Origin: Clostridia bacterium
GTDB lineage: Bacteria > Bacillota > Clostridia > Oscillospirales > CAG-272
NCBI GenBank assembly: GCA_017540175.1
Contig: JAFYBN010000054.1
Location: forward strand, 1 to 64,000
DNA: 64,000 bases
Direction: 5' to 3'
Position numbers and translations under genes: made by a program
Notes under the pieces: model-generated
Databases searched by the model: none
Told to the model about the DNA's origin: nothing
What the model saw: only the letters and a program-made list of their open reading frames with translations
Shown: in pieces, positions 5,387-55,879 of the stretch
Numbering within the stretch: position 1 is the stretch's first letter
Layout of the letters: every line of letters starts with the position of its first letter

Positions 5387-6064
5387 ATGATCGATCTTGA
5401 CGCATATCTCGAGAGCCTGATCGCCGAATGCAGAGCGGCCTTCGGCGGGCGGCTCCTCTATGTCGGGCTTCAGGGCAGTTATCTGCGCGGCGAGGCAACG
5501 GAGGATAGCGACGTCGACATCATGCTGCTGATCGACCGTCTGACGGCACAAGACCTGGATGAATACCGGACGATCCTCGATAGGATCGGAAACGCGGAGA
5601 AATCCTGCGGCTTTCTGTGCGGCAGGGACGAGATGGCGCGGTGGAACCCGCTGGAAATCCGCCATCTGCGGCATACGACGAAGGACTTCTTCGGCGCGCT
5701 GGAGAATTACCTCCCGGACGCGTCCCGGGCGGACGAGATCAATTTCGTGAAGCTCTCCCTCGGCAATCTGTATCACGAGCTTTGCCACCGCTATGTGCAC
5801 GCGGACCGGGAGACGAACCGGAGGAAGCTATGCCGCACCCTGAAGGGGCTGTTCTTCCTGATGCAGGATCTGTGTTGCCTCGAAACCGGGACCTTCGCCG
5901 CGACGAAGCGGGAACTCAGTGAGCTGGTTTCGGAGGAAGACCGCGCCGTGCTCAGGCTGACGGAGACGCCGGACCCGCTCACCCCCGCCGATTTCGACCG
6001 CGCCTTCCGACAGGTGTTCGACTGGTGCCAAAACGCCTTTGTCCGCGCGAGCCATCTCGGTTGA
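5387..6064 (+). CDS. Pol-beta-type nucleotidyltransferase domain protein
   Basis: A 225-residue cytoplasmic protein. The N-terminal 100 residues carry the minimal nucleotidyltransferase signature: G30-S31 followed by D42-x-D44 (the GS...DxD motif), with hydrophobic strands around it. The C-terminal half (about 110-225) is mostly helical, as in small-molecule or protein nucleotidyltransferases that have a helical substrate-binding domain. Whether it modifies an antibiotic, a protein or a nucleotide cannot be told. It is monocistronic with its own promoter, and an R2 repeat lies 9 bases after its stop. Confidence 0.8.
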   Translation: MIDLDAYLESLIAECRAAFGGRLLYVGLQGSYLRGEATEDSDVDIMLLIDRLTAQDLDEYRTILDRIGNAEKSCGFLCGRDEMARWNPLEIRHLRHTTKDFFGALENYLPDASRADEINFVKLSLGNLYHELCHRYVHADRETNRRKLCRTLKGLFFLMQDLCCLETGTFAATKRELSELVSEEDRAVLRLTETPDPLTPADFDRAFRQVFDWCQNAFVRASHLG

Positions 6065-6073
6065 TTTATTATG

Positions 6074-6127
6074 AAGGGGGAAACGCGGCTTCTTTGAAAA
6101 GAAGCCTGGCAAGAAACTTTCATACGA
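6074..6127 (+). repeat. R2 hairpin repeat, copy a
   Basis: A 54-bp element nearly identical to 14567-14618. It contains an 8-bp stem GGCTTCTT / AAGAAGCC (6087-6094 and 6099-6106) with a TGAA loop, then CTGGCAAGAAACTTT and ATACGA. Both copies lie just downstream of a plus-strand gene. The hairpin plus AACTTTTAT-like tail resembles the last module of R1. It may serve as a terminator or 3'-end stabiliser. Confidence 0.75.
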
Positions 6128-6197
6128 CTGGTGCAGCTTACCGTTCAAAGTGCAGTTCGGGGTAATGTGCGGCGCACCGACGGGCAGAACATACACA

Positions 6198-6240
6198 GGG
6201 CCGCCGCATTCTCCGTTTTCGGGAGCAAATGCGGCAGCCC
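6198..6240. terminator. Possible terminator hairpin between convergent genes
   Basis: A long imperfect hairpin with outer arms GGGCCGCCGCATT and AATGCGGCAGCCC and an inner CTCC/GGAG stem. It lies between the nucleotidyltransferase and the anti-sigma gene. The outer stem resembles the first hairpin of R1. No clean T-run follows, so termination is uncertain. The rest of 6128-6322 shows nothing else. Confidence 0.4.
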
Positions 6241-6322
6241 TTTCACTTATAATTTTTGCCCCTCTCCGAGGGAGGAGATCCGGTCGCCCGGGGTTTTGCG
6301 GCTCCGGTCGTGGCTGTGGTCG

Positions 6323-45849: not shown

Positions 45850-47475
45850 TTACGGATAATTCGAGAAATTGCAGCCGTCGAAAGCTTTTTCGCCGATCAT
45901 CTTCACATTGTCGGGAATCGTCAGGCTGCCCGTGAAGCCGCTGCAGTTGAAAAACGCGTATTCCCCGATCTTCCACACGCCGTTCCCGATCGTCAGGCTG
46001 CCCGTGAAACCGCTGCAGCCGAAAAACGCATGCGCCGCGATGATCGCCACGCTGTCCGGGATCGTCAGACTGCCCGTGAAGCCGCTGCAGCCGAAAAACG
46101 CGTTTTCCCCGATCGTCGTCACGCTGTCCCCGATCGTCAGACTGCCCGTGAAGCCGCGGCAGCTGAGAAACGCGTAGTCCCCGATCGTCGTCACGCCGTT
46201 CGGGATCGTCAGACTGCCCGTAAAGCCGGAGCATCTGTCAAACGCATAGTTCCCGATCGTCGTCACGCTGTCCGGGATCGTCAAACTGCCCGTAAAGCCG
46301 CACTGCGTGAACGCGGATTCCCCGATCTCCGTCACACCGCCCGAAATCGTCAGACTGCCCGTGAAGCCGCTGCAGAGACAAAATGCCCCGGTCCCGATCG
46401 TCCTCACGCCGTCCGGAATCGTCAGACTGCCCGTAAAACCGCCGCACCCCAAAAACGCGCTGATCCCGATCGTCGTCACGCTGTCCGGGATCGTCAGACT
46501 TCCCGTGAAGCCTCGGCAGCCGGTAAACGCGTTATCCCCGATCGTTGTCACGCCGTCCGGAATCGTCAGACTGCCCGTGAAGCCGCTGCAGTTGGCAAAC
46601 GCCCCGGCTCCGATCGACGTCACGCTGTCCGGAATCGTCAGACTGCCCGTGAAGCCGCGGCAGCCGGAAAACGCGTCTTTCCCGATCGTCGTCACGCTGT
46701 TCGGGATCGTCAGGCTGCCCGTGAAGCCGCTGCACCCCGCAAACGCATGGTCCCCGATCGTCGTCACGCTGTCCGGAATCGTCAGACTGCCTGTGAAGCC
46801 GCCGCCTCCTGAAAATGCACTATCTCCGATCTTCGTCACACAGGAAGATATCGTCAGGCTGCCCGTGAAGCCGCCGCAGCCGTTAAACGCACGGTCCCCG
46901 ATCTCCGTCACGCTGTCCGGGATCGTCAGGCTCCCCGTGAAGCCGCCGCAGTTTTGAAACGTCCTATTCCCGATCGTCGTAACGCTGGAAGGTATCGTCA
47001 GGCTCCCCGTGAAGCCGGTACAGAACTCAAACGCGCCCTCGCCGATCGTCGTCACGCTGTCCGGAATCGTCAAGACGCCCGTGAAGCCGACGCAGTCCTT
47101 AAAAGCAAAACTCCCGATCCCGGTAATATTCCCGGTCATGACAAGGCTTTTGATCGACTTCTTACAGTCCATCCACGGAGCAGCGGCGGCGCCTTTTTCT
47201 GCGTAATCCCACATGTCCCCGTTTCCGTACACGGACAGAACGCCGTCCTTGTAAAGACGCCAAAAAACGCCGTCGCCGCACTGCCCTTCGGCGACAATCG
47301 GCGGCGTACCGCCGGATTCGTCGCGGGGCGGCCTGCATTCGGTTTTCCGGCTTTTATCGCCGAACGCGTTTGTCTGCCTGCCTTCGTCTTTTGACGTCCC
47401 TCCGCCGTCCTTCCCCGCACGTCCCGCCCTGCGGAACGGCAGAGCCTCAAGAAGCAGAGAAATCAGATTTTTCAC
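45850..47475 (-). CDS. BspA-like leucine-rich-repeat protein 2, no signal peptide
   Basis: A 541-residue protein starting at GTG with GGAG 6 bases upstream. The cap module 'EGQCGDGVFWRLYKDGVLSVYG' is at about residues 63-92. Residues 131-541 are 17 successive repeats beginning 'FTGSLTI', nearly all of 24 residues and very uniform ('SVTTIG', 'AF', 'C'). Unlike its three relatives here, the N-terminus shows no hydrophobic signal or lipobox, and the array ends abruptly after the last repeat ('CNFSNYP') without a closing domain. It lies 55 bases after atpC with no terminator between, so it may be read from the atp operon. Loss of a signal sequence or an intracellular role are both possible. Confidence 0.88.
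   Translation of the reverse strand: MKNLISLLLEALPFRRAGRAGKDGGGTSKDEGRQTNAFGDKSRKTECRPPRDESGGTPPIVAEGQCGDGVFWRLYKDGVLSVYGNGDMWDYAEKGAAAAPWMDCKKSIKSLVMTGNITGIGSFAFKDCVGFTGVLTIPDSVTTIGEGAFEFCTGFTGSLTIPSSVTTIGNRTFQNCGGFTGSLTIPDSVTEIGDRAFNGCGGFTGSLTISSCVTKIGDSAFSGGGGFTGSLTIPDSVTTIGDHAFAGCSGFTGSLTIPNSVTTIGKDAFSGCRGFTGSLTIPDSVTSIGAGAFANCSGFTGSLTIPDGVTTIGDNAFTGCRGFTGSLTIPDSVTTIGISAFLGCGGFTGSLTIPDGVRTIGTGAFCLCSGFTGSLTISGGVTEIGESAFTQCGFTGSLTIPDSVTTIGNYAFDRCSGFTGSLTIPNGVTTIGDYAFLSCRGFTGSLTIGDSVTTIGENAFFGCSGFTGSLTIPDSVAIIAAHAFFGCSGFTGSLTIGNGVWKIGEYAFFNCSGFTGSLTIPDNVKMIGEKAFDGCNFSNYP
45860..47085. repeat. 72-bp tandem repeat array inside the BspA-like gene 2
   Basis: Seventeen in-frame units of about 72 bp, one of them 69 bp, with highly similar DNA: each contains ATCGTCAGRCTGCCCGTGAA (plus-strand reading). 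Such an array can expand or shrink by recombination without breaking the frame. Open frames on the opposite strand here are a by-product of the period being a multiple of three. Confidence 0.9.
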
Positions 47476-47530: not shown

Positions 47531-47827
47531 TCATTCCCCGCGCGGGTCCTTTCCCGTCAGCACGCGCACCGTGTTCTCCGAAACGACGGCTATGCCGCCC
47601 TCGAGCTGGCAGGACAGCACGGGTTTCCCGTCCGCGAACGCTTCGATTTTTCCGGGGAATACCGCCATCAGGGCGTCCGTATGCCCGCGGCGGATGCCCA
47701 CGGTACCGCCCGGGGCCCCCCCGTCTTTGGGATCCGGCACGGGCAGGCGCACGGAATCGCATTCGACCCGGCAGACCTCCCCGTCCGGCGTGAGTACGGA
47801 GAGCGTGATCGGTCTTTTCTCGTCCAT
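47531..47827 (-). CDS. atpC: ATP synthase epsilon subunit, short form
   Basis: A 98-residue subunit of the F1 central stalk. It contains the N-terminal beta-sandwich only ('LSVLTPDGEV', 'GIRRGHTDALMAVFPG', 'GGIAVVSENTVRVLT'). The usual C-terminal helical hairpin, about 40 residues, is missing. That hairpin inhibits rotation in many bacteria, so this enzyme should lack that brake. It begins 1 base after the atpD stop and is the last recognised atp gene. Confidence 0.88.
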   Translation of the reverse strand: MDEKRPITLSVLTPDGEVCRVECDSVRLPVPDPKDGGAPGGTVGIRRGHTDALMAVFPGKIEAFADGKPVLSCQLEGGIAVVSENTVRVLTGKDPRGE

Positions 47828-47828
47828 A

Positions 47829-49229
<1,401 letters not shown>

Positions 49230-50222
49230 TCAGTCCTCCGATTTCCTTGGATTGATGGCGGGGGCGGGATCGTTCTTCCGCGCCCCGGCGGTTTCGATCA
49301 CGCCTGCCGTGACCTCGCTCTGCCGTCTGCGGCTGATGTCCGATTCGAGCGACGCGGCGTTTTGTTCCGCGTTGTCCGACGCCGTCCGCATGGCGACGAG
49401 GGTCGCCGCCTGCGCGGCCGCCGCATTTTCGAGCACGGTCCCGTAAAAGTCCGCCGAAACGCATGTGTCGGCGGCGGCGCGCAGGACCGCGTCCCGGTTC
49501 GGGACGAACAAAACGTCGTCCGGCGGGGAGGTTTTTTTCTTTCCGCCCGGCGCGCCGAACAGGGTGTGCTTTTTTTCTTTGAGTGTCCCGTCGTCCGCGG
49601 GTGTCTCCGTCTCCTGAACGAGGGGCAGCAGGACGCGGGTCGACGGCGTCTGCGTGAGCATATTGACAAAGGAAAGCGAAATCACCTCGACCGAGGAGAC
49701 CTCGCCCGCGCCGAACAGCGCAAGCGCTTCCGCGAGGATCGCGGCGGCGTCCTCTGCCGCGGGAACGTCGGGGAGATCGAACTCCCGGCGGATCCGGTTT
49801 TTCGCCCCCGGCGGGCACTGCTCGCGAAACCGGTTCACGGCGTGCCGTCCCGCGACGATCAAAAGGGGCAGGGGGACCCCCCCGCGAAAAGACCGCGGGC
49901 GGGCTTCCCCCTCCGCCTCTTCTATCAGCCGGTCCGCGAAATCGTAAAGCCGCACGTTCGCGCCGCCGGACAGACCGCGGTTCGCGCCGAGCAGCACGAA
50001 GCAGCGGGGCGCGTCCGGCGATTTCACCGGGTACGCCTCGGCAAGCGCCGCGCCGAATTTCGTTTTCAGCTCACGGGCGGCGGAGGCGTACGCCTCGTAT
50101 CCGTTCAGGCTGCCGCTGATCCGGGCGAATTTCACCGCGGACGCCGTTTTGAGAGCCCCCGCGAGCTGCCCGGTCATGCGGACGCTTTCGAGCTTTTTTT
50201 TCAGTTCTCTGAGGCTCGCCAT
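49230..50222 (-). CDS. atpG: ATP synthase gamma subunit
   Basis: A 330-residue rotor subunit, longer than the usual 285 or so. The N-terminal helix 'LRELKKKLESV' and the C-terminal helix ending 'RRRQSEVTAGVIETAGA' (RQ conserved) form the coiled-coil axle. An extra hydrophilic stretch of about 35 residues lies at about 190-225 ('DDGTLKEKKHTLFGAPGG'), and the C-terminal tail is longer by about 15. The ATG overlaps the alpha stop (TAATG), so the two are coupled. Confidence 0.92.
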   Translation of the reverse strand: MASLRELKKKLESVRMTGQLAGALKTASAVKFARISGSLNGYEAYASAARELKTKFGAALAEAYPVKSPDAPRCFVLLGANRGLSGGANVRLYDFADRLIEEAEGEARPRSFRGGVPLPLLIVAGRHAVNRFREQCPPGAKNRIRREFDLPDVPAAEDAAAILAEALALFGAGEVSSVEVISLSFVNMLTQTPSTRVLLPLVQETETPADDGTLKEKKHTLFGAPGGKKKTSPPDDVLFVPNRDAVLRAAADTCVSADFYGTVLENAAAAQAATLVAMRTASDNAEQNAASLESDISRRRQSEVTAGVIETAGARKNDPAPAINPRKSED

Positions 50223-52456
50223 TATGCGGCCTCCGTTGACGCGCGCTCCACGCACGCGGCGACCGCGTCGCGCAGCTGTCCGCGCTCGTCATCCGTCAGC
50301 TTTTTGCCCGCGGAAAGGAGGCGGACGATTTCGGGATGTTCCTTTTCCATCCGCTCGCTCAGACGGAGGGCGAAATTCTCCATGTCCTCCGGGTCCGTCC
50401 CAACGGCGAAGCCCTCGGACACGGCAAAGATGAGCAAGGTCTCCTGCCAGTCCGGAACGGGCGCGTACCGGCGCTGGCGAAGCGCCGCCATCATGCGGCT
50501 GCCCGCCTCGAGCACGCGCCGGGTGGAGGCGTCCACATCCGCGCCGAACTGCGTAAAGCCCTCAAGCTCCCGGTATTGGGCAAGGTCCATGCGCAGACGC
50601 CCGGACACCTGCTTCATGAATTTCGTCTGCGCCGCGCCGCCCACGCGGGACACGGAAAGCCCCACGTTCACGGCAGGCCGCTGACCCTCGTTGAACAGAT
50701 CGGAATCGAGGAAGATCTGTCCGTCCGTAATGGAGATCACATTGGTCGGGATATAGGCGGAAATGTCGCCCGCCTGTGTTTCGATGATGGGAAGCGCGGT
50801 CATGGAGCCGCCCCCCATTTCCGGGGAAAGCTGGGCGGCGCGTTCCAGAAGACGCGCGTGCAGATAGAAGATGTCGCCGGGGTACGCCTCGCGGCCGGAG
50901 GGTCTGCCGAGCAGGAGGGAGAGCTCGCGGTACGCCACGGCGTGCTTTGAGAGATCGTCGTAGACGACGAGCGCGTCCCTGCCCCCGTACATGAAGTATT
51001 CCGCCATGGCGCAGCCCGCGAAGGGCGCGATATACTGGAAGGAAGCGGAAGAAGACGCGGGCGCGCACACGATGACGGTGTAATCCATCGCGCCGAGCTT
51101 TTCGAGCCGGTCGCGGATCTCGGTGACAGTGGAATCCTTCTGGCCGATCGCGACGTAGACGCAGACGGTGCCCGTGCCCTTCTGGCTCAGAATGGCGTCC
51201 ACGGCGAGGGAGGTCTTGCCCGTCTGCCGGTCGCCGATGATGAGCTCGCGCTGACCGCGCCCGATGGGGACGAGCGCGTCCACGGCGCGGATGCCGGTAT
51301 GCAGGGGGCGGGAAACCGCCGCGCGGTCCGGAATGGACGGGGAGGGGCGCTCAATGGGCATGCGCTCCGCGGTGAAAATGCGGCCCCTGCCGTCGAGGGC
51401 GTGACCGAGCGGATCCACCACCCGTCCGAGCAGGGCGTCACCCACGGGGACGGACGCGATGCGGCCCACGCGGCGAACCTTCGTCCCGCTTTCCACGCGC
51501 TCATACTGGCCGTAGATCACGCAGCCGATGCGGTCCGCTTCGATGTCGAGGACCATGCCGCGCTCGCCGCTCTCGAATTCCACGACCTCGCCGTACATGA
51601 TATCGGCAAGACCGTCCATCCAGCAGATGCCGTCGGAGACGCTGAGCACGCGCCCGAGCTGGAATTCACTGACGCCGTATTTCCTTACGAAGAGCGAGTC
51701 GTGGAGCCCCTCGAGGAGCTGCTGTGCGCTCTCGTCCCCTCTGAGGTTCTGCGTCTCCATGTCAAGGCGGAGGCGGTAGAGCAGGTCCGCGCCGGTGAAG
51801 TCGTACACCGTGTCGCCGACGCGGAAGCGGAATCCGGCGATGAGCTCGGGATCCTCCCGGACCCAGTAGGACGGTTTTCCGCCGACCTCGGCGAGCATTT
51901 CCTCCGCGCGGCGTCCGATGCGGTCCACGATATTCTGCGGGAGGGGATGGGCGGAGGTGAGCGTCACGTAGAGGACGTCATGCCTTGTCAGGTAGGCGAT
52001 GTCGCCGGGGGTGATCTCCATGCGGGAGACGATCTCGTCGGCGACCTCCTCTTCCCGGACGCGGAACGCCTTCTGAAAGGGCTCCTGCGCCATGAGCTCT
52101 GCGGCGCGCTTTACGACGGCGGAGATCATGCTCTCCCTTGTGTCCGCGAGCATGTCGCGGCGCAGGCTGTTTTTGGTTTCCGCGGTCTTTTCGTCACACA
52201 GGGCGGCGTTCTTCTCCGCGTTCTCCCGGATCGCGCGAAGCTGCGCTTCGACGGACTCCGGCAGGGCGTCGGAAAAAGAAGCCGGGATCCCGGGGAGGCT
52301 CGGCTCGCTGTTTTCGATGCGCTGTGCCTCGTCCAGCTCCCGGCCGATGCGCTCGCGGCGCGACCGGAAGATGGAGACGATCGTCTTTCTGCCGAACAGC
52401 AGGATGACGGCCGCGAGAATCAAAAAATTGATGAGAGAATAGACAAAAATCATCAT
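50222..52456 (-). CDS. atpA: Fused ATP synthase b'-delta-alpha subunit
   Basis: One uninterrupted frame of 744 residues. Residues 5-22 are a membrane helix followed by a b-type segment ('RSRRERIGRELDEAQ'). Residues about 65-150 are a charged helix. Residues about 160-232 match the delta C-terminal domain ('VTLTSAHPLPQNIVDRI', 'EDPELIAGFRFRVGDTVYD'). Residues about 240-744 are a full alpha subunit with Walker A 'GDRQTGKT' (408-415) and 'SVSRVGGAAQ'. No separate atpH exists in the operon, so delta is supplied here. b'-delta fusions are known in mycobacteria; attachment to alpha is not something I know. An internal ATG (Met233, 51760) would give a 512-residue alpha of normal size but has no ribosome site. 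Confidence 0.93.
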   Translation of the reverse strand: MMIFVYSLINFLILAAVILLFGRKTIVSIFRSRRERIGRELDEAQRIENSEPSLPGIPASFSDALPESVEAQLRAIRENAEKNAALCDEKTAETKNSLRRDMLADTRESMISAVVKRAAELMAQEPFQKAFRVREEEVADEIVSRMEITPGDIAYLTRHDVLYVTLTSAHPLPQNIVDRIGRRAEEMLAEVGGKPSYWVREDPELIAGFRFRVGDTVYDFTGADLLYRLRLDMETQNLRGDESAQQLLEGLHDSLFVRKYGVSEFQLGRVLSVSDGICWMDGLADIMYGEVVEFESGERGMVLDIEADRIGCVIYGQYERVESGTKVRRVGRIASVPVGDALLGRVVDPLGHALDGRGRIFTAERMPIERPSPSIPDRAAVSRPLHTGIRAVDALVPIGRGQRELIIGDRQTGKTSLAVDAILSQKGTGTVCVYVAIGQKDSTVTEIRDRLEKLGAMDYTVIVCAPASSSASFQYIAPFAGCAMAEYFMYGGRDALVVYDDLSKHAVAYRELSLLLGRPSGREAYPGDIFYLHARLLERAAQLSPEMGGGSMTALPIIETQAGDISAYIPTNVISITDGQIFLDSDLFNEGQRPAVNVGLSVSRVGGAAQTKFMKQVSGRLRMDLAQYRELEGFTQFGADVDASTRRVLEAGSRMMAALRQRRYAPVPDWQETLLIFAVSEGFAVGTDPEDMENFALRLSERMEKEHPEIVRLLSAGKKLTDDERGQLRDAVAACVERASTEAA

Positions 52457-52460
52457 GGCT

Positions 52461-52922
52461 TCAGTCCCTCGGTCCTTCGGCCCGTTGATCCGTCGGACGC
52501 TCTCTCCCGCCGGTCAGCGCGGAAAGCCAGTCCTCGGCAAAGCGGTCCGCGTTCGATTCGAGGATGCGGGAGAGTTCTTCCTTTTCACGCGCAAGCGCCG
52601 CGCGGCAGGCGGCGGTTTCTTCCTCGCCGCGGCGGACGGCGTCCGACACAAGCCGGTCGGCGTCGGCGCGGGCGGCGGCAAGCGCCTGTCCCGCGAGGGA
52701 GGCGGTATGCGCCTCCTGCTCCGCGTGAAAGCGCTCAAGCGCCTCCTGCGCCTCGGCGGCGGCGCGCTCCGCGGCGGCTTTCTTTTCCGCCGCCGCGCGG
52801 ACGCGCTCCCCGCGTTTGTCCATGAACGCGAGCATCGGTTTGAAGAGCAGATTGTTCAAAATGAGGACGAGCGCCCCGAAGCAGATGACGGTCCAGAGAA
52901 GCACGGGCAGTTGAACGGTCAT
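52461..52922 (-). CDS. atpF: ATP synthase b subunit
   Basis: A 153-residue stator subunit: a membrane helix at about 7-27, then one long Ala/Glu/Arg-rich helix ('AAAEKKAAAERAAAEAQEAL'). The ATG at 52922 follows GAGGAGG and gives the proper length; the frame runs further upstream into atpE without meaning. A second b-like segment is carried by the fused gene that starts 4 bases downstream, so the stator may be b with b'. Confidence 0.92.
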   Translation of the reverse strand: MTVQLPVLLWTVICFGALVLILNNLLFKPMLAFMDKRGERVRAAAEKKAAAERAAAEAQEALERFHAEQEAHTASLAGQALAAARADADRLVSDAVRRGEEETAACRAALAREKEELSRILESNADRFAEDWLSALTGGRERPTDQRAEGPRD

Positions 52923-52933
52923 CCCGGACCTCC

Positions 52934-53164
52934 TCAGACCTTCGCCGCCAGCATGAATCCGATGAGCAGGCCGTAGATGGTGAGAGCCTCCATCAGAGAC
53001 AGGGCGATGATGAGGGTGGAGCGGATGTCCTTTGCCGCGTCGGGCTGACGGGCAATGCTTTCCATGGCGGCTTTCGCGGCAAGGCCCTGCCCGAGGGCGG
53101 GGAAGATGGTGCTCACCGAGATGGAGAGCGCGGCGGCGAGTGCGATGATGGCGGAGGAATCCAT
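52934..53164 (-). CDS. atpE: ATP synthase c subunit
   Basis: A 76-residue hairpin of two membrane helices, forming the rotor ring. Pro22 and Gln26 ('FPALGQG') are in helix 1, the polar loop is 'ARQPD', and the ion-binding Glu59 lies in 'LMEALTIYG' of helix 2. The residue after Glu is Ala, not the Ser/Thr of sodium-type rings, and 'EALTIYG' matches the chloroplast-type proton ring, so proton coupling is favoured. The ATG at 53164 has AAGGAG 8 bases upstream. It is separated from atpB by 1465 bases. Confidence 0.95.
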   Translation of the reverse strand: MDSSAIIALAAALSISVSTIFPALGQGLAAKAAMESIARQPDAAKDIRSTLIIALSLMEALTIYGLLIGFMLAAKV

Positions 53165-53728
53165 AATACAAACTCCTTTTCGGAATTGAATTTCGGGTTT
53201 GAGTTTTTTGGTATGGCGGTATCTAAGGTACAAACGCTGCGCGTTTGGGAACGAATTTTTGTCCTACGCGGACGGCGCAGGGAGGGGACCAGCTCAGGCC
53301 GCAGGTCCCCTCCCTGAGGGTCCCATTGGCCATGCAATCTGTTGTTCTTGATACTCAGAAGCGGCTCCGATTCGTTTGCGGCACGTATCAGCCGAAGCTT
53401 TCAGCGACTGCGGCTCTCGAATCGTCAGCCGAAACATTGCAATTCGCGCTCGCGCGAATTGCCGCGATCCAAATTCGCGAATAACACGGCGCGGGTGGCT
53501 GTCAGCGGAAGTTTGGAGTGCATCTTCGCGGCCTGAAGTTTGCGTTTATCTGCTAAGCATTTTACCGTTTCAGCGCGACGATACAGTCAGCTTCCGTTGT
53601 TCGAATAGCGAACGCGAGTTAGGAATCCTGCGGAGCCGCGATAAAGAGAATGCTGTTTTATGCTGTCGCTGTCGCGAGAATGGGATACTCCCTTCGGCCT
53701 GTTTTCTCTTCAAAAGTAGTAATGATCA
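53165..53728. other. Non-coding, less GC-rich segment within the atp operon
   Basis: No credible gene. It holds a perfect 13-bp inverted repeat (53278-53290 and 53304-53316, CAGGGAGGGGACC) and a perfect 10-bp one (53439-53448 and 53453-53462, GCAATTCGCG with a CTCG loop). Neither is followed by a T-run. No strong minus-strand promoter for atpE was found, so atpE and later genes may depend on read-through. Base composition becomes clearly richer in A and T towards the inserted gene. Confidence 0.6.
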
Positions 53729-54529
53729 TTATCGAATGCGAAATACTATGGTTTCACCGTCAAAAAGACTAATTCCAGATTTGTTACCGCTAAAAGTGAT
53801 TCTAAGTGGGATGTTAGTGTTTTTTTCGATTTCTAACGGAACATCCCCAAATATTACTATTTCGATAGATGATCCTTTGGGCTCGAAATAGTGGTATCGA
53901 TATTCATAAGAACTCCCGGACAATCCCAATTTATACATATATCCATCGTCATAATCAGCTTGTACCTGTAATAAGTCGGTGCTAAATAGTGTTTTTGTTT
54001 TTCCGATGTAGTTCAAAGTGAATTTCACCCACAAATAACATCTGTCTTCACCGGCTGCTGAAACGTTGATTGCAGTTGTGTCGTCATTGGTTGGAAGAAC
54101 TTCCCTATCATCATTATCTGAATACCAATAAGATGCGCCCCGAGAGAATTCAATCCCGTCTAATGTAAGTTCCCAATTTTCAGTTTTGACCGTATCTCCC
54201 ACTTTTGCTTCCGTCAAAGCTCCAAGTTTTCCTATATAGGTTGGGGCATATGAAACGATTACAACAAGGAGAAAAACGGCAAGCAGAACGAAGAACGCGA
54301 TTTTCCAAGGATTTCTTTTGGCTACGGGCGTACTGCTATCGTTTCCGGTTCGTTCCGGGTTTATGGGTTGTGCCTCATTTCTAATGGGTTCTATGGTTTC
54401 TATTCTGTGTTTCTGGGAAATGCGGTTCAGACAGTCATTGCACAGACAAACATTCACAGTTCGATCCCCACGGGAAATACGCGCAGCTACATCCGCAGGT
54501 TTCTTACAGGCAGCACATTCTTTAGGCAT
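53729..54529 (-). CDS. Inserted AT-rich gene: zinc-finger membrane protein of unknown function
   Basis: A 266-residue protein with an N-terminal four-cysteine zinc-binding segment ('CAACKKPADV' and 'CLCNDCLNRIS', residues 4-36), a membrane helix at about 73-92 and an extracellular beta-sandwich-like domain (about 105-266) similar in style to DUF4352 ('VKTENWELTLDGIEF', 'YLWVKFTLNYIGKT'). Its codons favour A and T, unlike the genes on both sides, and it lies between atpB and atpE where no gene is normally found. This points to recent insertion. There are no transposase, integrase or obvious target-site repeats. It is probably transcribed with the atp genes; no link to ATP synthesis is evident. 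Confidence 0.8.
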   Translation of the reverse strand: MPKECAACKKPADVAARISRGDRTVNVCLCNDCLNRISQKHRIETIEPIRNEAQPINPERTGNDSSTPVAKRNPWKIAFFVLLAVFLLVVIVSYAPTYIGKLGALTEAKVGDTVKTENWELTLDGIEFSRGASYWYSDNDDREVLPTNDDTTAINVSAAGEDRCYLWVKFTLNYIGKTKTLFSTDLLQVQADYDDGYMYKLGLSGSSYEYRYHYFEPKGSSIEIVIFGDVPLEIEKNTNIPLRITFSGNKSGISLFDGETIVFRIR

Positions 54530-54629
54530 CTTTAATCTATCCTCTTATAGAGAAAATGGGGTGGTGGCAGCCGCTCAGTTTTTTCGGTCGATGGATTTTC
54601 CCGATCCGGTTCAGCAGCCGCTGTGCTGC

Positions 54630-55304
54630 TTATTCCGCCTCCACCGCTTCTTCCAGATAGATGGAGGTCAACATGGTGAAGACGACTGCCTGGATGGCGC
54701 AGAAGAGGAGGGAGAGGCCCATCATGATGACGGGGAAGCCGATGGGGAGCAGCTCGTAGAGGTTGTGGGTCACGGTTTCCTCCCCGAAGACGTTGCCGAA
54801 CAGACGGAGCGCGAGGGAGGCGGGCTTGATGAATTCGTCCAGCACCATGAGGGGAAGCATGAACGCGATGGGGCTGACAAAGCGCTTGAAGTAATGCTTC
54901 GCCCCCGCTTTCAGTCCCGCGATCTGCAGGAACAGAAAGGTGAAGACGCCCAGTCCGAGCGTGACGGACAGGGAGGAGGTCGGCGCGCGGAAGTATTTCG
55001 TGAGCCCCACGCCGGGGATGATGCCGGAATAATTGGCGAAAATGATGAAGATGAAGAGGGAACCGAGGAAGAAGAAGTATTTCCGGGCAAGGTGCTTCCC
55101 GATGATGCCGGAGAAAAAGCCGTCGAGGTATTCGACGCCCGTCTCGACCATGTTCTGCAGCACGCCCGGTCTCTCCTTCATCCGGCGGGTCGCGAGGAAG
55201 GAAAGCACGGCGATCAGGGCAACGAGGACCCACATGGCGATCACCTCGCCCGTGATGTCGAGCACGCCTCCGATCCGGATGAGAACTTCGGATTCTTCTC
55301 CCAT
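54630..55304 (-). CDS. atpB: ATP synthase a subunit
   Basis: A 224-residue membrane subunit that forms the ion half-channels. The essential Arg167 is in 'LALRLFGNVFGEE'; 'YSGIIPG' and 'LTSIYLEEA' are other family marks. The N-terminal part before the first helix is short. The ATG overlaps the upstream stop (TAATG). Confidence 0.95.
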   Translation of the reverse strand: MGEESEVLIRIGGVLDITGEVIAMWVLVALIAVLSFLATRRMKERPGVLQNMVETGVEYLDGFFSGIIGKHLARKYFFFLGSLFIFIIFANYSGIIPGVGLTKYFRAPTSSLSVTLGLGVFTFLFLQIAGLKAGAKHYFKRFVSPIAFMLPLMVLDEFIKPASLALRLFGNVFGEETVTHNLYELLPIGFPVIMMGLSLLFCAIQAVVFTMLTSIYLEEAVEAE

Positions 55305-55822
55305 TACCGTTCGCCTCCTTTCTGCGTCTGCCCGTCCGCGGTTTCGGTTTCGGGCGGTTTTTCGTCGGTTTCGTTTTCAGGTTTTATGGGTTCGCCTTCG
55401 GACGCGCCGGGGGCGTTTTCGCTTTTGGCGGGACTGTTTTCACCTCCGGCCGGCCTCTTTTGCGACCTGCGGTTCACCTCCCGCACGAGGAGGGGGGTAA
55501 AGACGAGGAGGGGCAGGGTCAGCCCGGCGACGGCTCCCGCGAGCAGCCAGGTCCTGTTCCACGGCGTGTGCGGCGCGGCGAAATAGACGAGGACGAGGAA
55601 CCCCACGTTCAGCGTCATGCGGAGCACCGGCACCGCGCCGACAAGAGGACCGGAGCCGGATGAGGGGCCTGATGAGGAGCCGGGCGCGGAGCCGGACCCC
55701 GCGCCGCCGTCCTTCGGCAGGGCGGCTTTTTTCACGAGGGTATAATTGAAAAAGGCGATCAGAGCGCCGAGCGAAGCGGCAAGAAAAGCTCCGAAGAGGG
55801 AATGGGAAAGGAACTCAGGCAC
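55304..55822 (-). CDS. Probable ATP synthase assembly protein AtpI-like
   Basis: A 172-residue protein with four membrane helices: a first pair split by a Gly/Ser/Pro-rich loop (about 33-62, 'GSGSAPGSSSGPSSGSG') and a second pair, then a hydrophilic tail rich in Glu, Pro and Lys. The GTG at 55822 has AGGAGG 7 bases upstream; the frame extends 10 codons more. Its position ahead of atpB and its topology fit AtpI/subunit I, which assists c-ring assembly. Sequence similarity is weak. Confidence 0.7.
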   Translation of the reverse strand: MPEFLSHSLFGAFLAASLGALIAFFNYTLVKKAALPKDGGAGSGSAPGSSSGPSSGSGPLVGAVPVLRMTLNVGFLVLVYFAAPHTPWNRTWLLAGAVAGLTLPLLVFTPLLVREVNRRSQKRPAGGENSPAKSENAPGASEGEPIKPENETDEKPPETETADGQTQKGGER

Positions 55823-55879
55823 GTCGTCGCCTCCTTTCTGCGCGGTTCGCACGTTTGAATCGCGATAGATTATTGAGTA

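What the first reader, a model, noticed from the sequence alone, without database searches (positions are those of the whole stretch)
50222..52456. ATP synthase b', delta and alpha in one 744-residue reading frame
Seen: a single frame holds a membrane helix with a b-type helix, the delta C-terminal domain and a complete alpha subunit, and the operon has no other delta gene. Known: mycobacteria fuse b' to delta, and an F1 head holds three alpha, one delta and two b-type chains. Inference: if the fusion is translated as one chain, three delta domains and three extra stalk helices would be present, which breaks the usual stoichiometry. Either the stalk architecture is new, or alpha is also made separately from Met233 (51760, 512 residues), or the chain is cut.
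Basis: partly seen in the sequence, partly recalled or inferred. Interest (0 to 1): 0.85.

Follow-up and report, generated by a model that had tools for sequence, protein, structure and literature searches.

The report
Natural stalk-delta-alpha fusion in ATP synthase
In a group of mostly gut-dwelling bacteria three parts of the ATP-making rotary enzyme are encoded as one chain, which, if it stays whole, would give the enzyme three outer stalks instead of one, an arrangement shown so far for this enzyme type only in an engineered version.

Summary
[quoted passage not shown] It is not an assembly fault: 80 of 80 loci kept from a scan of named genomes span the same delta-alpha junction, 76 with a complete 734-790 aa frame; a separate delta was found beside none of them. 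In 8 of 19 carrier genomes tested it is the only alpha of F or V type found, so it presumably works. No signature of an internal start was seen; the Met233 column is Met in 8 of 77 sequences. The delta-alpha half is that of an engineered enzyme (Ueno et al. 2025, PMC12229609; PDB 9JC1, best match to the junction, E 9.9e-20), which formed up to three stalks and three a-subunits and doubled H+/ATP. That paper already notes natural delta-alpha fusions (Acidaminococcus). Here a b' helix is fused as well, in a lineage of its own (21 of 21 rows in one clade), so three membrane-anchored stalks look obligatory. Stoichiometry is inferred, not measured. The window's genome also has a conventional F-ATPase with a Na+-like c subunit; the fused one has an H+-like c subunit. 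New variant of a known kind.

The parts
50222..52456 (-). b'-deltaCTD-alpha fusion gene, 744 aa
   Evidence: open frame; Pfam domains; 80 of 80 kept loci
52391..52450 (-). membrane helix, residues 3-22
   Evidence: hydropathy 2.73; PF00430 residues 3-100
52010..52390 (-). b-type helical segment, residues 23-149, with a variable proline-bearing break at about 47-66 (helix inferred)
   Evidence: PF00430; profile match to Bacillus PS3 b 6n2y; region statistics
51767..51985 (-). delta (OSCP) C-terminal domain, residues 158-230; no N-terminal domain
   Evidence: PF00213 profile 99-169 of 172
51671..51766 (-). linker and alpha N-terminal helix, residues 231-262 (helix inferred)
   Evidence: length 59-68 residues between flanking motifs, sequence variable; collinear with 9jc1
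50225..51670 (-). complete alpha subunit, residues 263-744
   Evidence: TIGR00962 697 bits, over cut-off; P-loop GDRQTGKT and SVSRVG present
49230..50222 (-). gamma subunit; its ATG overlaps the fusion's stop (TAATG) behind a GGAGG
   Evidence: PF00231; junction
47829..49226 (-). beta subunit
   Evidence: TIGR01039 754.5 bits
47531..47827 (-). epsilon subunit, 98 aa, beta-sandwich domain only
   Evidence: PF02823; length in relatives median 97, n 70
52461..52922 (-). separate b-type subunit, 153 aa
   Evidence: PF00430
52934..53164 (-). c subunit, 76 aa, closest in the PDB to 2wie_A and chloroplast c chains
54630..55304 (-). a subunit
   Evidence: PF00119
55304..55852 (-). small protein at the atpI position, no family over cut-off
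   Evidence: ORFs like it at the same place in relatives

Best explanation
A working H+-type F-ATPase in which each of the three alpha chains carries, in one piece, its own stalk: membrane helix, b'-type helix, delta C-terminal domain, then alpha. The delta N-terminal domain, which in ordinary enzymes sits on the threefold axis and limits the stalks to one (PMC12229609), is absent. The enzyme therefore has three identical b'-deltaCTD-alpha stator arms, each pairing with a separate b, and can seat up to three a-subunits round one c-ring. Both non-covalent joints of the ordinary stalk (b to delta, delta to alpha) are replaced by covalent ones. Expected result: more H+ per ATP, so a low-gear enzyme that makes ATP at low proton-motive force or pumps many protons per ATP against little force. 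Shown: the reading frame, its conservation, absence of the delta N-terminal domain, no separate delta found, active-site motifs, the only alpha found in 8 of 19 genomes tested. Inferred: one unbroken chain in the cell, three stalks, pairing with b, number of a-subunits, ion and gear.
For: Junction conserved in 80 of 80 kept loci, 76 frames complete; a, c, b, fusion, gamma, beta and epsilon all found in 67 of 80, and of the other 13 all but L119 and L136 (epsilon not recognised) fit truncation by the end of the fetched DNA; no delta found by BLAST in 80. In 19 of the 28 carrier genomes that I had, delta within the fusion matches only inside profile positions 95-172; in 8 of the 19 the fused alpha and its beta are the only PF00006 proteins over cut-off and no other delta was found, so alpha is unlikely to come from elsewhere. 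Junction length 60 residues in 65 of 81, 59-68 in all. The junction's best match in the PDB is the engineered deltaDeltaN-alpha chain 9jc1_I, collinear over the junction with a single-residue gap in the linker, deposited by Ueno et al.. That design gave up to three stalks and three a-subunits by cryo-EM and H+/ATP 5.8 against 3.0. Beta P-loop 75 of 75, GERSREG 73 of 75, a-subunit Arg motif 73 of 75, alpha SVSRVG 77 of 80 (the other three are cut before it). Several origins: one clade for all deltaCTD-alpha forms is rejected, p 0.002, which suggests that the arrangement is useful.
Against: Processing cannot be excluded from sequence. The engineered enzyme carried about two a-subunits on average and few triple-stalk particles were seen. 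The fusion is not universal even among close kin: full-length in 10 of 24 same-genus genomes, many incomplete. Five of the eight sole-alpha genomes are 91-99% complete, three only 84-87%, so a missed second alpha is possible there. Whether three a-subunits are made is not visible in sequence. The window's own delta and b matches are weak (E 7e-06 and 1e-07), and ATP-synt_B was matched by 35 of 43 members.
Confidence: 0.66

Rival explanations
1. The chain is whole and three b' helices are present, but only one arm recruits b and a; the other two are idle membrane anchors, so the ion-to-ATP ratio is ordinary.
For: a and b are single genes in the window's operon; symmetry mismatch between three arms and the c-ring is possible (inference); stalk numbers in the engineered enzyme were mixed.
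Against: In the engineered enzyme every stalk seen kept its a-subunit; all three arms here would be chemically identical.
Confidence: 0.2
2. Alpha is released by an internal start or by proteolysis and the enzyme is an ordinary single-stalk F-ATPase with a b'-delta stalk chain.
For: It would restore known stoichiometry. Some sequences have a start codon with a weak Shine-Dalgarno in the linker (20 of 81 with 4 nt or more, 4 of 81 with 5 or more). The linker's sequence is variable (majority identity 0.43).
Against: No start position conserved (best Met columns in the linker 14 of 77); no ATG at all in the linker of 22 of 81; site frequency within the range of control stretches and no synonymous constraint. 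The delta N-terminal domain is missing, so a freed deltaCTD could not clamp the alpha trimer in the usual way (inference). The SD test has limited power: the fusion's own starts show 5-nt sites in only 2 of 79 and 4-nt sites in 32 of 79.
Confidence: 0.12
3. Fused and conventional alpha (from the second operon) mix, one fused to two plain, giving one stalk.
For: 5 of 19 genomes tested (G000, G002, G024, G124, G405) hold a second alpha of conventional length and a complete delta.
Against: In 8 of 19 no other alpha was found. In G000 it is 52% identical and belongs to an operon with its own b, delta, gamma, beta and epsilon and a Na+-like c subunit.
Confidence: 0.02
4. Assembly or sequencing artefact, or a pseudogene.
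For: The source is a draft assembly of 125 contigs.
Against: Same junction in 80 of 80 kept loci on separate contigs; catalytic motifs kept.
Confidence: 0.005

Closest known systems
Engineered deltaDeltaN-alpha FoF1 of Bacillus PS3 (Ueno et al. 2025, PMC12229609; PDB 9JC1, 9JC2)
   Same: delta N-terminal domain gone, delta C-terminal domain fused to the alpha N-terminus by a short linker; epsilon without its C-terminal domain; junction collinear with a single-residue gap in the linker.
   Different: There b is separate and binds reversibly. Here a b' membrane helix and stalk helix are fused in front of delta as well, and another b is a separate partner.
Natural delta-alpha fusions of Acidaminococcus fermentans and UniProt G4Q3K6, A0A1I2C5T3, named in the same paper
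   Same: delta without its N-terminal domain fused to alpha in a natural operon.
   Different: The text read mentions no b segment; the supplementary figure was not seen, so a b' part there is not formally excluded. Not compared by sequence here.
Mycobacterial b-delta subunit (PDB 7jg5)
   Same: b-type membrane helix fused to delta (two-part match).
   Different: There alpha is a separate chain, delta is complete and there is one copy per enzyme (recalled).
N-ATPase / alternate F1F0 (TIGR03321, TIGR03324, TIGR03305)
   Same: No separate delta gene (operon beta-epsilon-a-c-b-alpha-gamma, PMC5709465 passage); a second F-type operon in some genomes.
   Different: All alt_F1F0 models score under cut-off while the atpA and atpD models score over theirs; here beta and epsilon come last.

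Membership tests
F-type ATP synthase | alpha, beta, gamma, epsilon, a, b, c genes in one operon | tested here: met
   all seven found in 67 of 80 relatives
F-type ATP synthase | delta/OSCP with N- and C-terminal domains | tested here: not met
   only profile positions 99-169 of 172; within 95-172 in 19 of 19 genomes tested
F-type ATP synthase | single peripheral stalk, one a-subunit | not testable with these tools
   needs the purified enzyme
F-type ATP synthase | catalytic and ion-path residues | tested here: met
   beta P-loop 75 of 75, GERSREG 73 of 75, a Arg motif 73 of 75, alpha SVSRVG 77 of 80, the other three cut before it
deltaDeltaN-alpha multi-stalk FoF1 | delta N-terminal domain absent, deltaCTD fused to alpha | tested here: met
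deltaDeltaN-alpha multi-stalk FoF1 | two or three stalks and a-subunits, raised H+/ATP | not testable with these tools
   inferred from PMC12229609 only
N-ATPase (alternate F1F0) | alpha and beta over TIGR03324 and TIGR03305 cut-offs | tested here: not met
   584.2 against 750.5 and 586.6 against 752 bits
Mycobacterial b-delta | b fused to a complete delta, alpha separate | tested here: not met
   delta N-terminal domain absent; alpha in the same frame

The most novel reading that the evidence does not exclude
A natural F-ATPase with three obligatory, covalently built stator arms and three working a-subunits round one H+ c-ring. If its ring is like those of its nearest solved c subunits (14-15 in Spirulina and chloroplast, recalled), three a-subunits would move about as many protons per ATP as the ring has c subunits, more than twice the 5.8 of the engineered enzyme: a low gear for life at very small proton-motive force, on a design that arose at least twice.
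Probability: 0.38. Interest if true: 0.93.

Novelty: new variant of a known kind. Interest (0 to 1): 0.76.

Why it matters
The rule of one stalk and one a-subunit is held to fix the ion cost of ATP in F-type enzymes. An engineered enzyme broke it in 2025, and its authors proposed that nature had too. Here is a clade of mostly gut bacteria whose version is tied together more firmly than the engineered one, is the only rotary ATPase found in some genomes, and by the tree arose separately from other delta-alpha fusions. It makes the question 'do natural multi-stalk, low-gear ATP synthases exist?' directly testable.

Tried and rejected
Internal start at Met233 or elsewhere: Met in 8 of 77 at that column, starts with SD no more frequent than in control stretches, no synonymous constraint. 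The positive control of the SD test was poor (2 of 79 of the fusion's own starts with 5 nt or more, 32 of 79 with 4 or more), so this test alone decides little.

N-ATPase membership: rejected on NCBIfam cut-offs. Alpha supplied from another operon: no other alpha found in 8 of 19 genomes; nine of the 28 carrier genomes known to me (G001, G003, G006, G011, G012, G013, G019, G175, G198) were not given to that search. Single origin of all deltaCTD-alpha forms: AU test p 0.002, 3.7e-05 with full-delta fusions added, 0.017 for this clade plus the main other clade; the last group was drawn after seeing the tree. Two long branches (L039, L041) make their own places unsure. Rows dropped before the tree because my P-loop pattern missed them: L094, L117, L160 of this kind and L047, L167; L049 and L050 were not put in.

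A joint alignment of both fusion kinds had no stretch conserved enough for the genome scan, so the one named-genome scan used the b'-delta-alpha kind alone; 53 of its 133 confirmed loci were not kept by the tool and not examined. Whether the Acidaminococcus fusions also carry b' could not be checked.

PDB sequence search was used instead.
Full report
What is there. The minus-strand operon at 47531-55852 reads atpI-like, a, c, b, fusion, gamma, beta, epsilon, with one unrelated ORF between a and c. The fusion, 50222-52456, is one open frame of 744 codons. Residues 3-22 are a membrane helix by hydropathy, 3-100 match ATP-synt_B, 158-230 match the C-terminal part of delta/OSCP (profile 99-169 of 172) and 268-734 are alpha, each over Pfam's cut-off. 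The delta N-terminal domain is absent. b ends 4 bases before the fusion's ATG, and the fusion's stop overlaps the gamma start (TAATG).

It is real and widespread in one order. One search covered 59 genomes, the window's own included: 12 of the other 58 held a match over nearly the whole fusion (13 loci; 10 of 24 genomes of the same genus, 1 of another genus of the family, 1 of another family of the order), 57-75% identical. A profile of the b'-delta part found full-length matches in 18 of 394 genomes of the order (the window's own included), in four families, 17 of the 18 in open frames of 736-784 and one of 521. In samples drawn evenly from the class (391) and phylum (398), which hold few genomes of this order, only the window's own genome had the fusion at E 1e-12; the other seven hits were L182 (see Origins) and six frames of 172-285 aa, of which I looked at three. 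A scan of the named genomes confirmed 133 loci and kept 80, all titled as metagenome-assembled genomes, most labelled Clostridia, Oscillospiraceae or the like, many naming rumen, caecum, rectum or faeces. All 80 carry the delta-alpha junction in one frame; 76 frames are complete (734-790 aa), three are cut at the 3' end and one at the 5' end; 79 of 80 show the membrane helix, the exception being the one cut at its 5' end. Of 43 members scanned, 43 match OSCP and alpha, 35 match ATP-synt_B at E 0.01. Genes a, c, b, fusion, gamma, beta and epsilon were all found in 67 of 80; 11 of the other 13 look truncated by the end of the fetched DNA, and in L119 and L136 epsilon was not recognised. BLAST with the window genome's conventional delta found a delta gene beside 0 of 80.

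It presumably works. Of 28 carrier genomes known to me I gave 19 to a search for PF00006. Eight (G054, G122, G093, G380, G363, G369, G339, G294; completeness 84-99%) hold only the fused alpha and its beta over cut-off; six (G014, G027, G150, G422, G315, G411) also have a pair whose frame lengths suggest an A/V-type enzyme, and five (G000, G002, G024, G124, G405) a second alpha of conventional length (the A/V label is my inference). G411 also has a second F operon with a delta-alpha fusion. A separate, complete delta was found only in the five. Catalytic motifs are kept.

One chain or two. The distance from the delta motif GDTVYD to alpha's DGICW is 60 residues in 65 of 81 sequences and 59-68 in all; 12 of 81 have 7-8 more than that. 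The linker (227-262) is variable in sequence, with no deletions against the window in 51 representatives (gap fraction printed as 0.00). The Met233 column is Met in 8 of 77 and Leu or Ile in 66. Linker starts with an SD-like site occur in 19 of 77, against 0-21 of 77 in eight control stretches (five lower, three higher), and fourfold sites are no more conserved than elsewhere. So there is no sign of a second start, though the SD test is weak, since the fusion's own starts seldom show such a site. Cutting of the protein remains untested.

What it works like. Ueno et al. 2025 (PMC12229609; abstract, passages and the whole Discussion read; supplement not seen) deleted the delta N-terminal domain of Bacillus PS3 and fused delta's C-terminal domain to alpha. 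Up to three stalks and three a-subunits formed, H+/ATP rose from 3.0 to 5.8, and they conclude that the delta N-terminal domain limits an F-ATPase to one stalk. The window clade's junction matches that engineered chain (9jc1_I) better than anything else in the PDB (E 9.9e-20), collinear with a single-residue gap in the linker. Their epsilon lacked its C-terminal domain by design; here epsilon is naturally short (98 aa; median 97 in 70 relatives), as it also is in the conventional operon of this genome (88 aa). They report natural delta-alpha fusions in Acidaminococcus fermentans and two UniProt entries and predict a multi-stalk structure there.

What is different. Here the b' helix is fused too. 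The b' segment aligns with PS3 b residues 11-147, long enough by that alignment to reach from membrane to the top of F1 (inference). The separate b is about 140 aa in relatives (median of 79; 153 in the window) against 165 in the same genome's conventional operon, as if it no longer needed the end that binds delta (inference). Each alpha thus brings its own anchored arm. In the engineered enzyme stalks came off during preparation; a fused b' could not (inference).

Origins. The same order also holds deltaCTD-alpha fusions without a membrane helix (16 in the tree, 571-603 aa), full delta-alpha fusions (671-680 aa; L161, L172, L174) and one case with a free 73-aa deltaCTD gene beside alpha (L041). 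In another order, L182 has b and a deltaCTD-alpha chain in the same frame separated by a stop. In a careful tree of 50 alphas the b'-delta-alpha kind is one clade (21 of 21, support 100/100), and a single clade of all deltaCTD-alpha forms is rejected (p 0.002). Repeated origin suggests that the arrangement is useful (inference).

Ions. The fusion operon's c subunit is closest in the PDB to 2wie_A (Spirulina, name recalled) and chloroplast c chains and carries MEALTIY or a near form in 78 of 78 c subunits recovered from the 80 loci; those rings are H+-specific with 14-15 subunits (recalled). The conventional operon's c subunit is closest to 4bem, 3zk1 and 1yce, Na+ rings (1yce so titled; the others recalled). 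The genome thus seems to have a Na+ enzyme of ordinary build and an H+ enzyme of fused build (inference).

What is in print. Searches for delta-alpha fusion, peripheral stalk with gene fusion, N-ATPase operon, multiple or three peripheral stalks, multi-stalk, Acidaminococcus, b-delta with atpA and Clostridia, and delta and alpha gene fusion led to the natural delta-alpha fusion only in PMC12229609 and to b-delta fusions of actinobacteria in PMC5709465 (passages). Passages of PMC5376962 and PMC6131620 mention no such fusion; other papers were seen as listings only. None of these searches showed a b-delta-alpha fusion; the library lacks most subscription papers and holds no bioRxiv preprints.

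Verdict. A real, conserved F-ATPase variant that presumably works; three stalks are the likeliest reading (0.66), three working a-subunits possible (0.38). Not shown: the protein's state in the cell.

Noticed in passing
window 53165-54629: An insert of about 1.4 kb with lower GC (0.41-0.52 against 0.59-0.67 in the operon genes measured) holding a 266-aa ORF without a family over cut-off lies between c and a. In 74 of 75 relatives measured the a-c gap is -22 to 89 bases; one (L098) has 728.
   Followed up: partly
L005 3743-10922 (G000:C6): A second, conventional F-ATPase operon with complete delta and a Na+-like c subunit in the same genome.
   Followed up: yes
L161 3125-5167, L172 2912-4927, L174 2975-4990: What looks like full-length delta, N-terminal domain included, fused to alpha: three delta N-terminal domains per enzyme if uncut, which the one-site picture does not explain (judged by length and sequence, not by a domain search).
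   Followed up: no
L041 about 5990-6260: A free gene for a 73-residue delta C-terminal domain between b and an unfused alpha (judged by eye).
   Followed up: no
L184 1360-2175, L185 1372-2190: Long b subunits (271-272 aa) that end in what looks like a delta C-terminal domain, with alpha separate.
   Followed up: no
L182: b and a deltaCTD-alpha chain in one frame with a stop between them, as an ancestor of the triple fusion might have looked.
   Followed up: no
L094, L101, L117, L119, L160: The alpha (non-catalytic) P-loop departs from GDRQTGK in some members: GDRSTGKS, GDHQTGKS or GDRQCGKS.
   Followed up: no
window 45850-47475: A 541-aa ORF of many near-identical FTGSLTIP repeats downstream of the operon, like BspA-type leucine-rich repeats (name recalled).
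   Followed up: no
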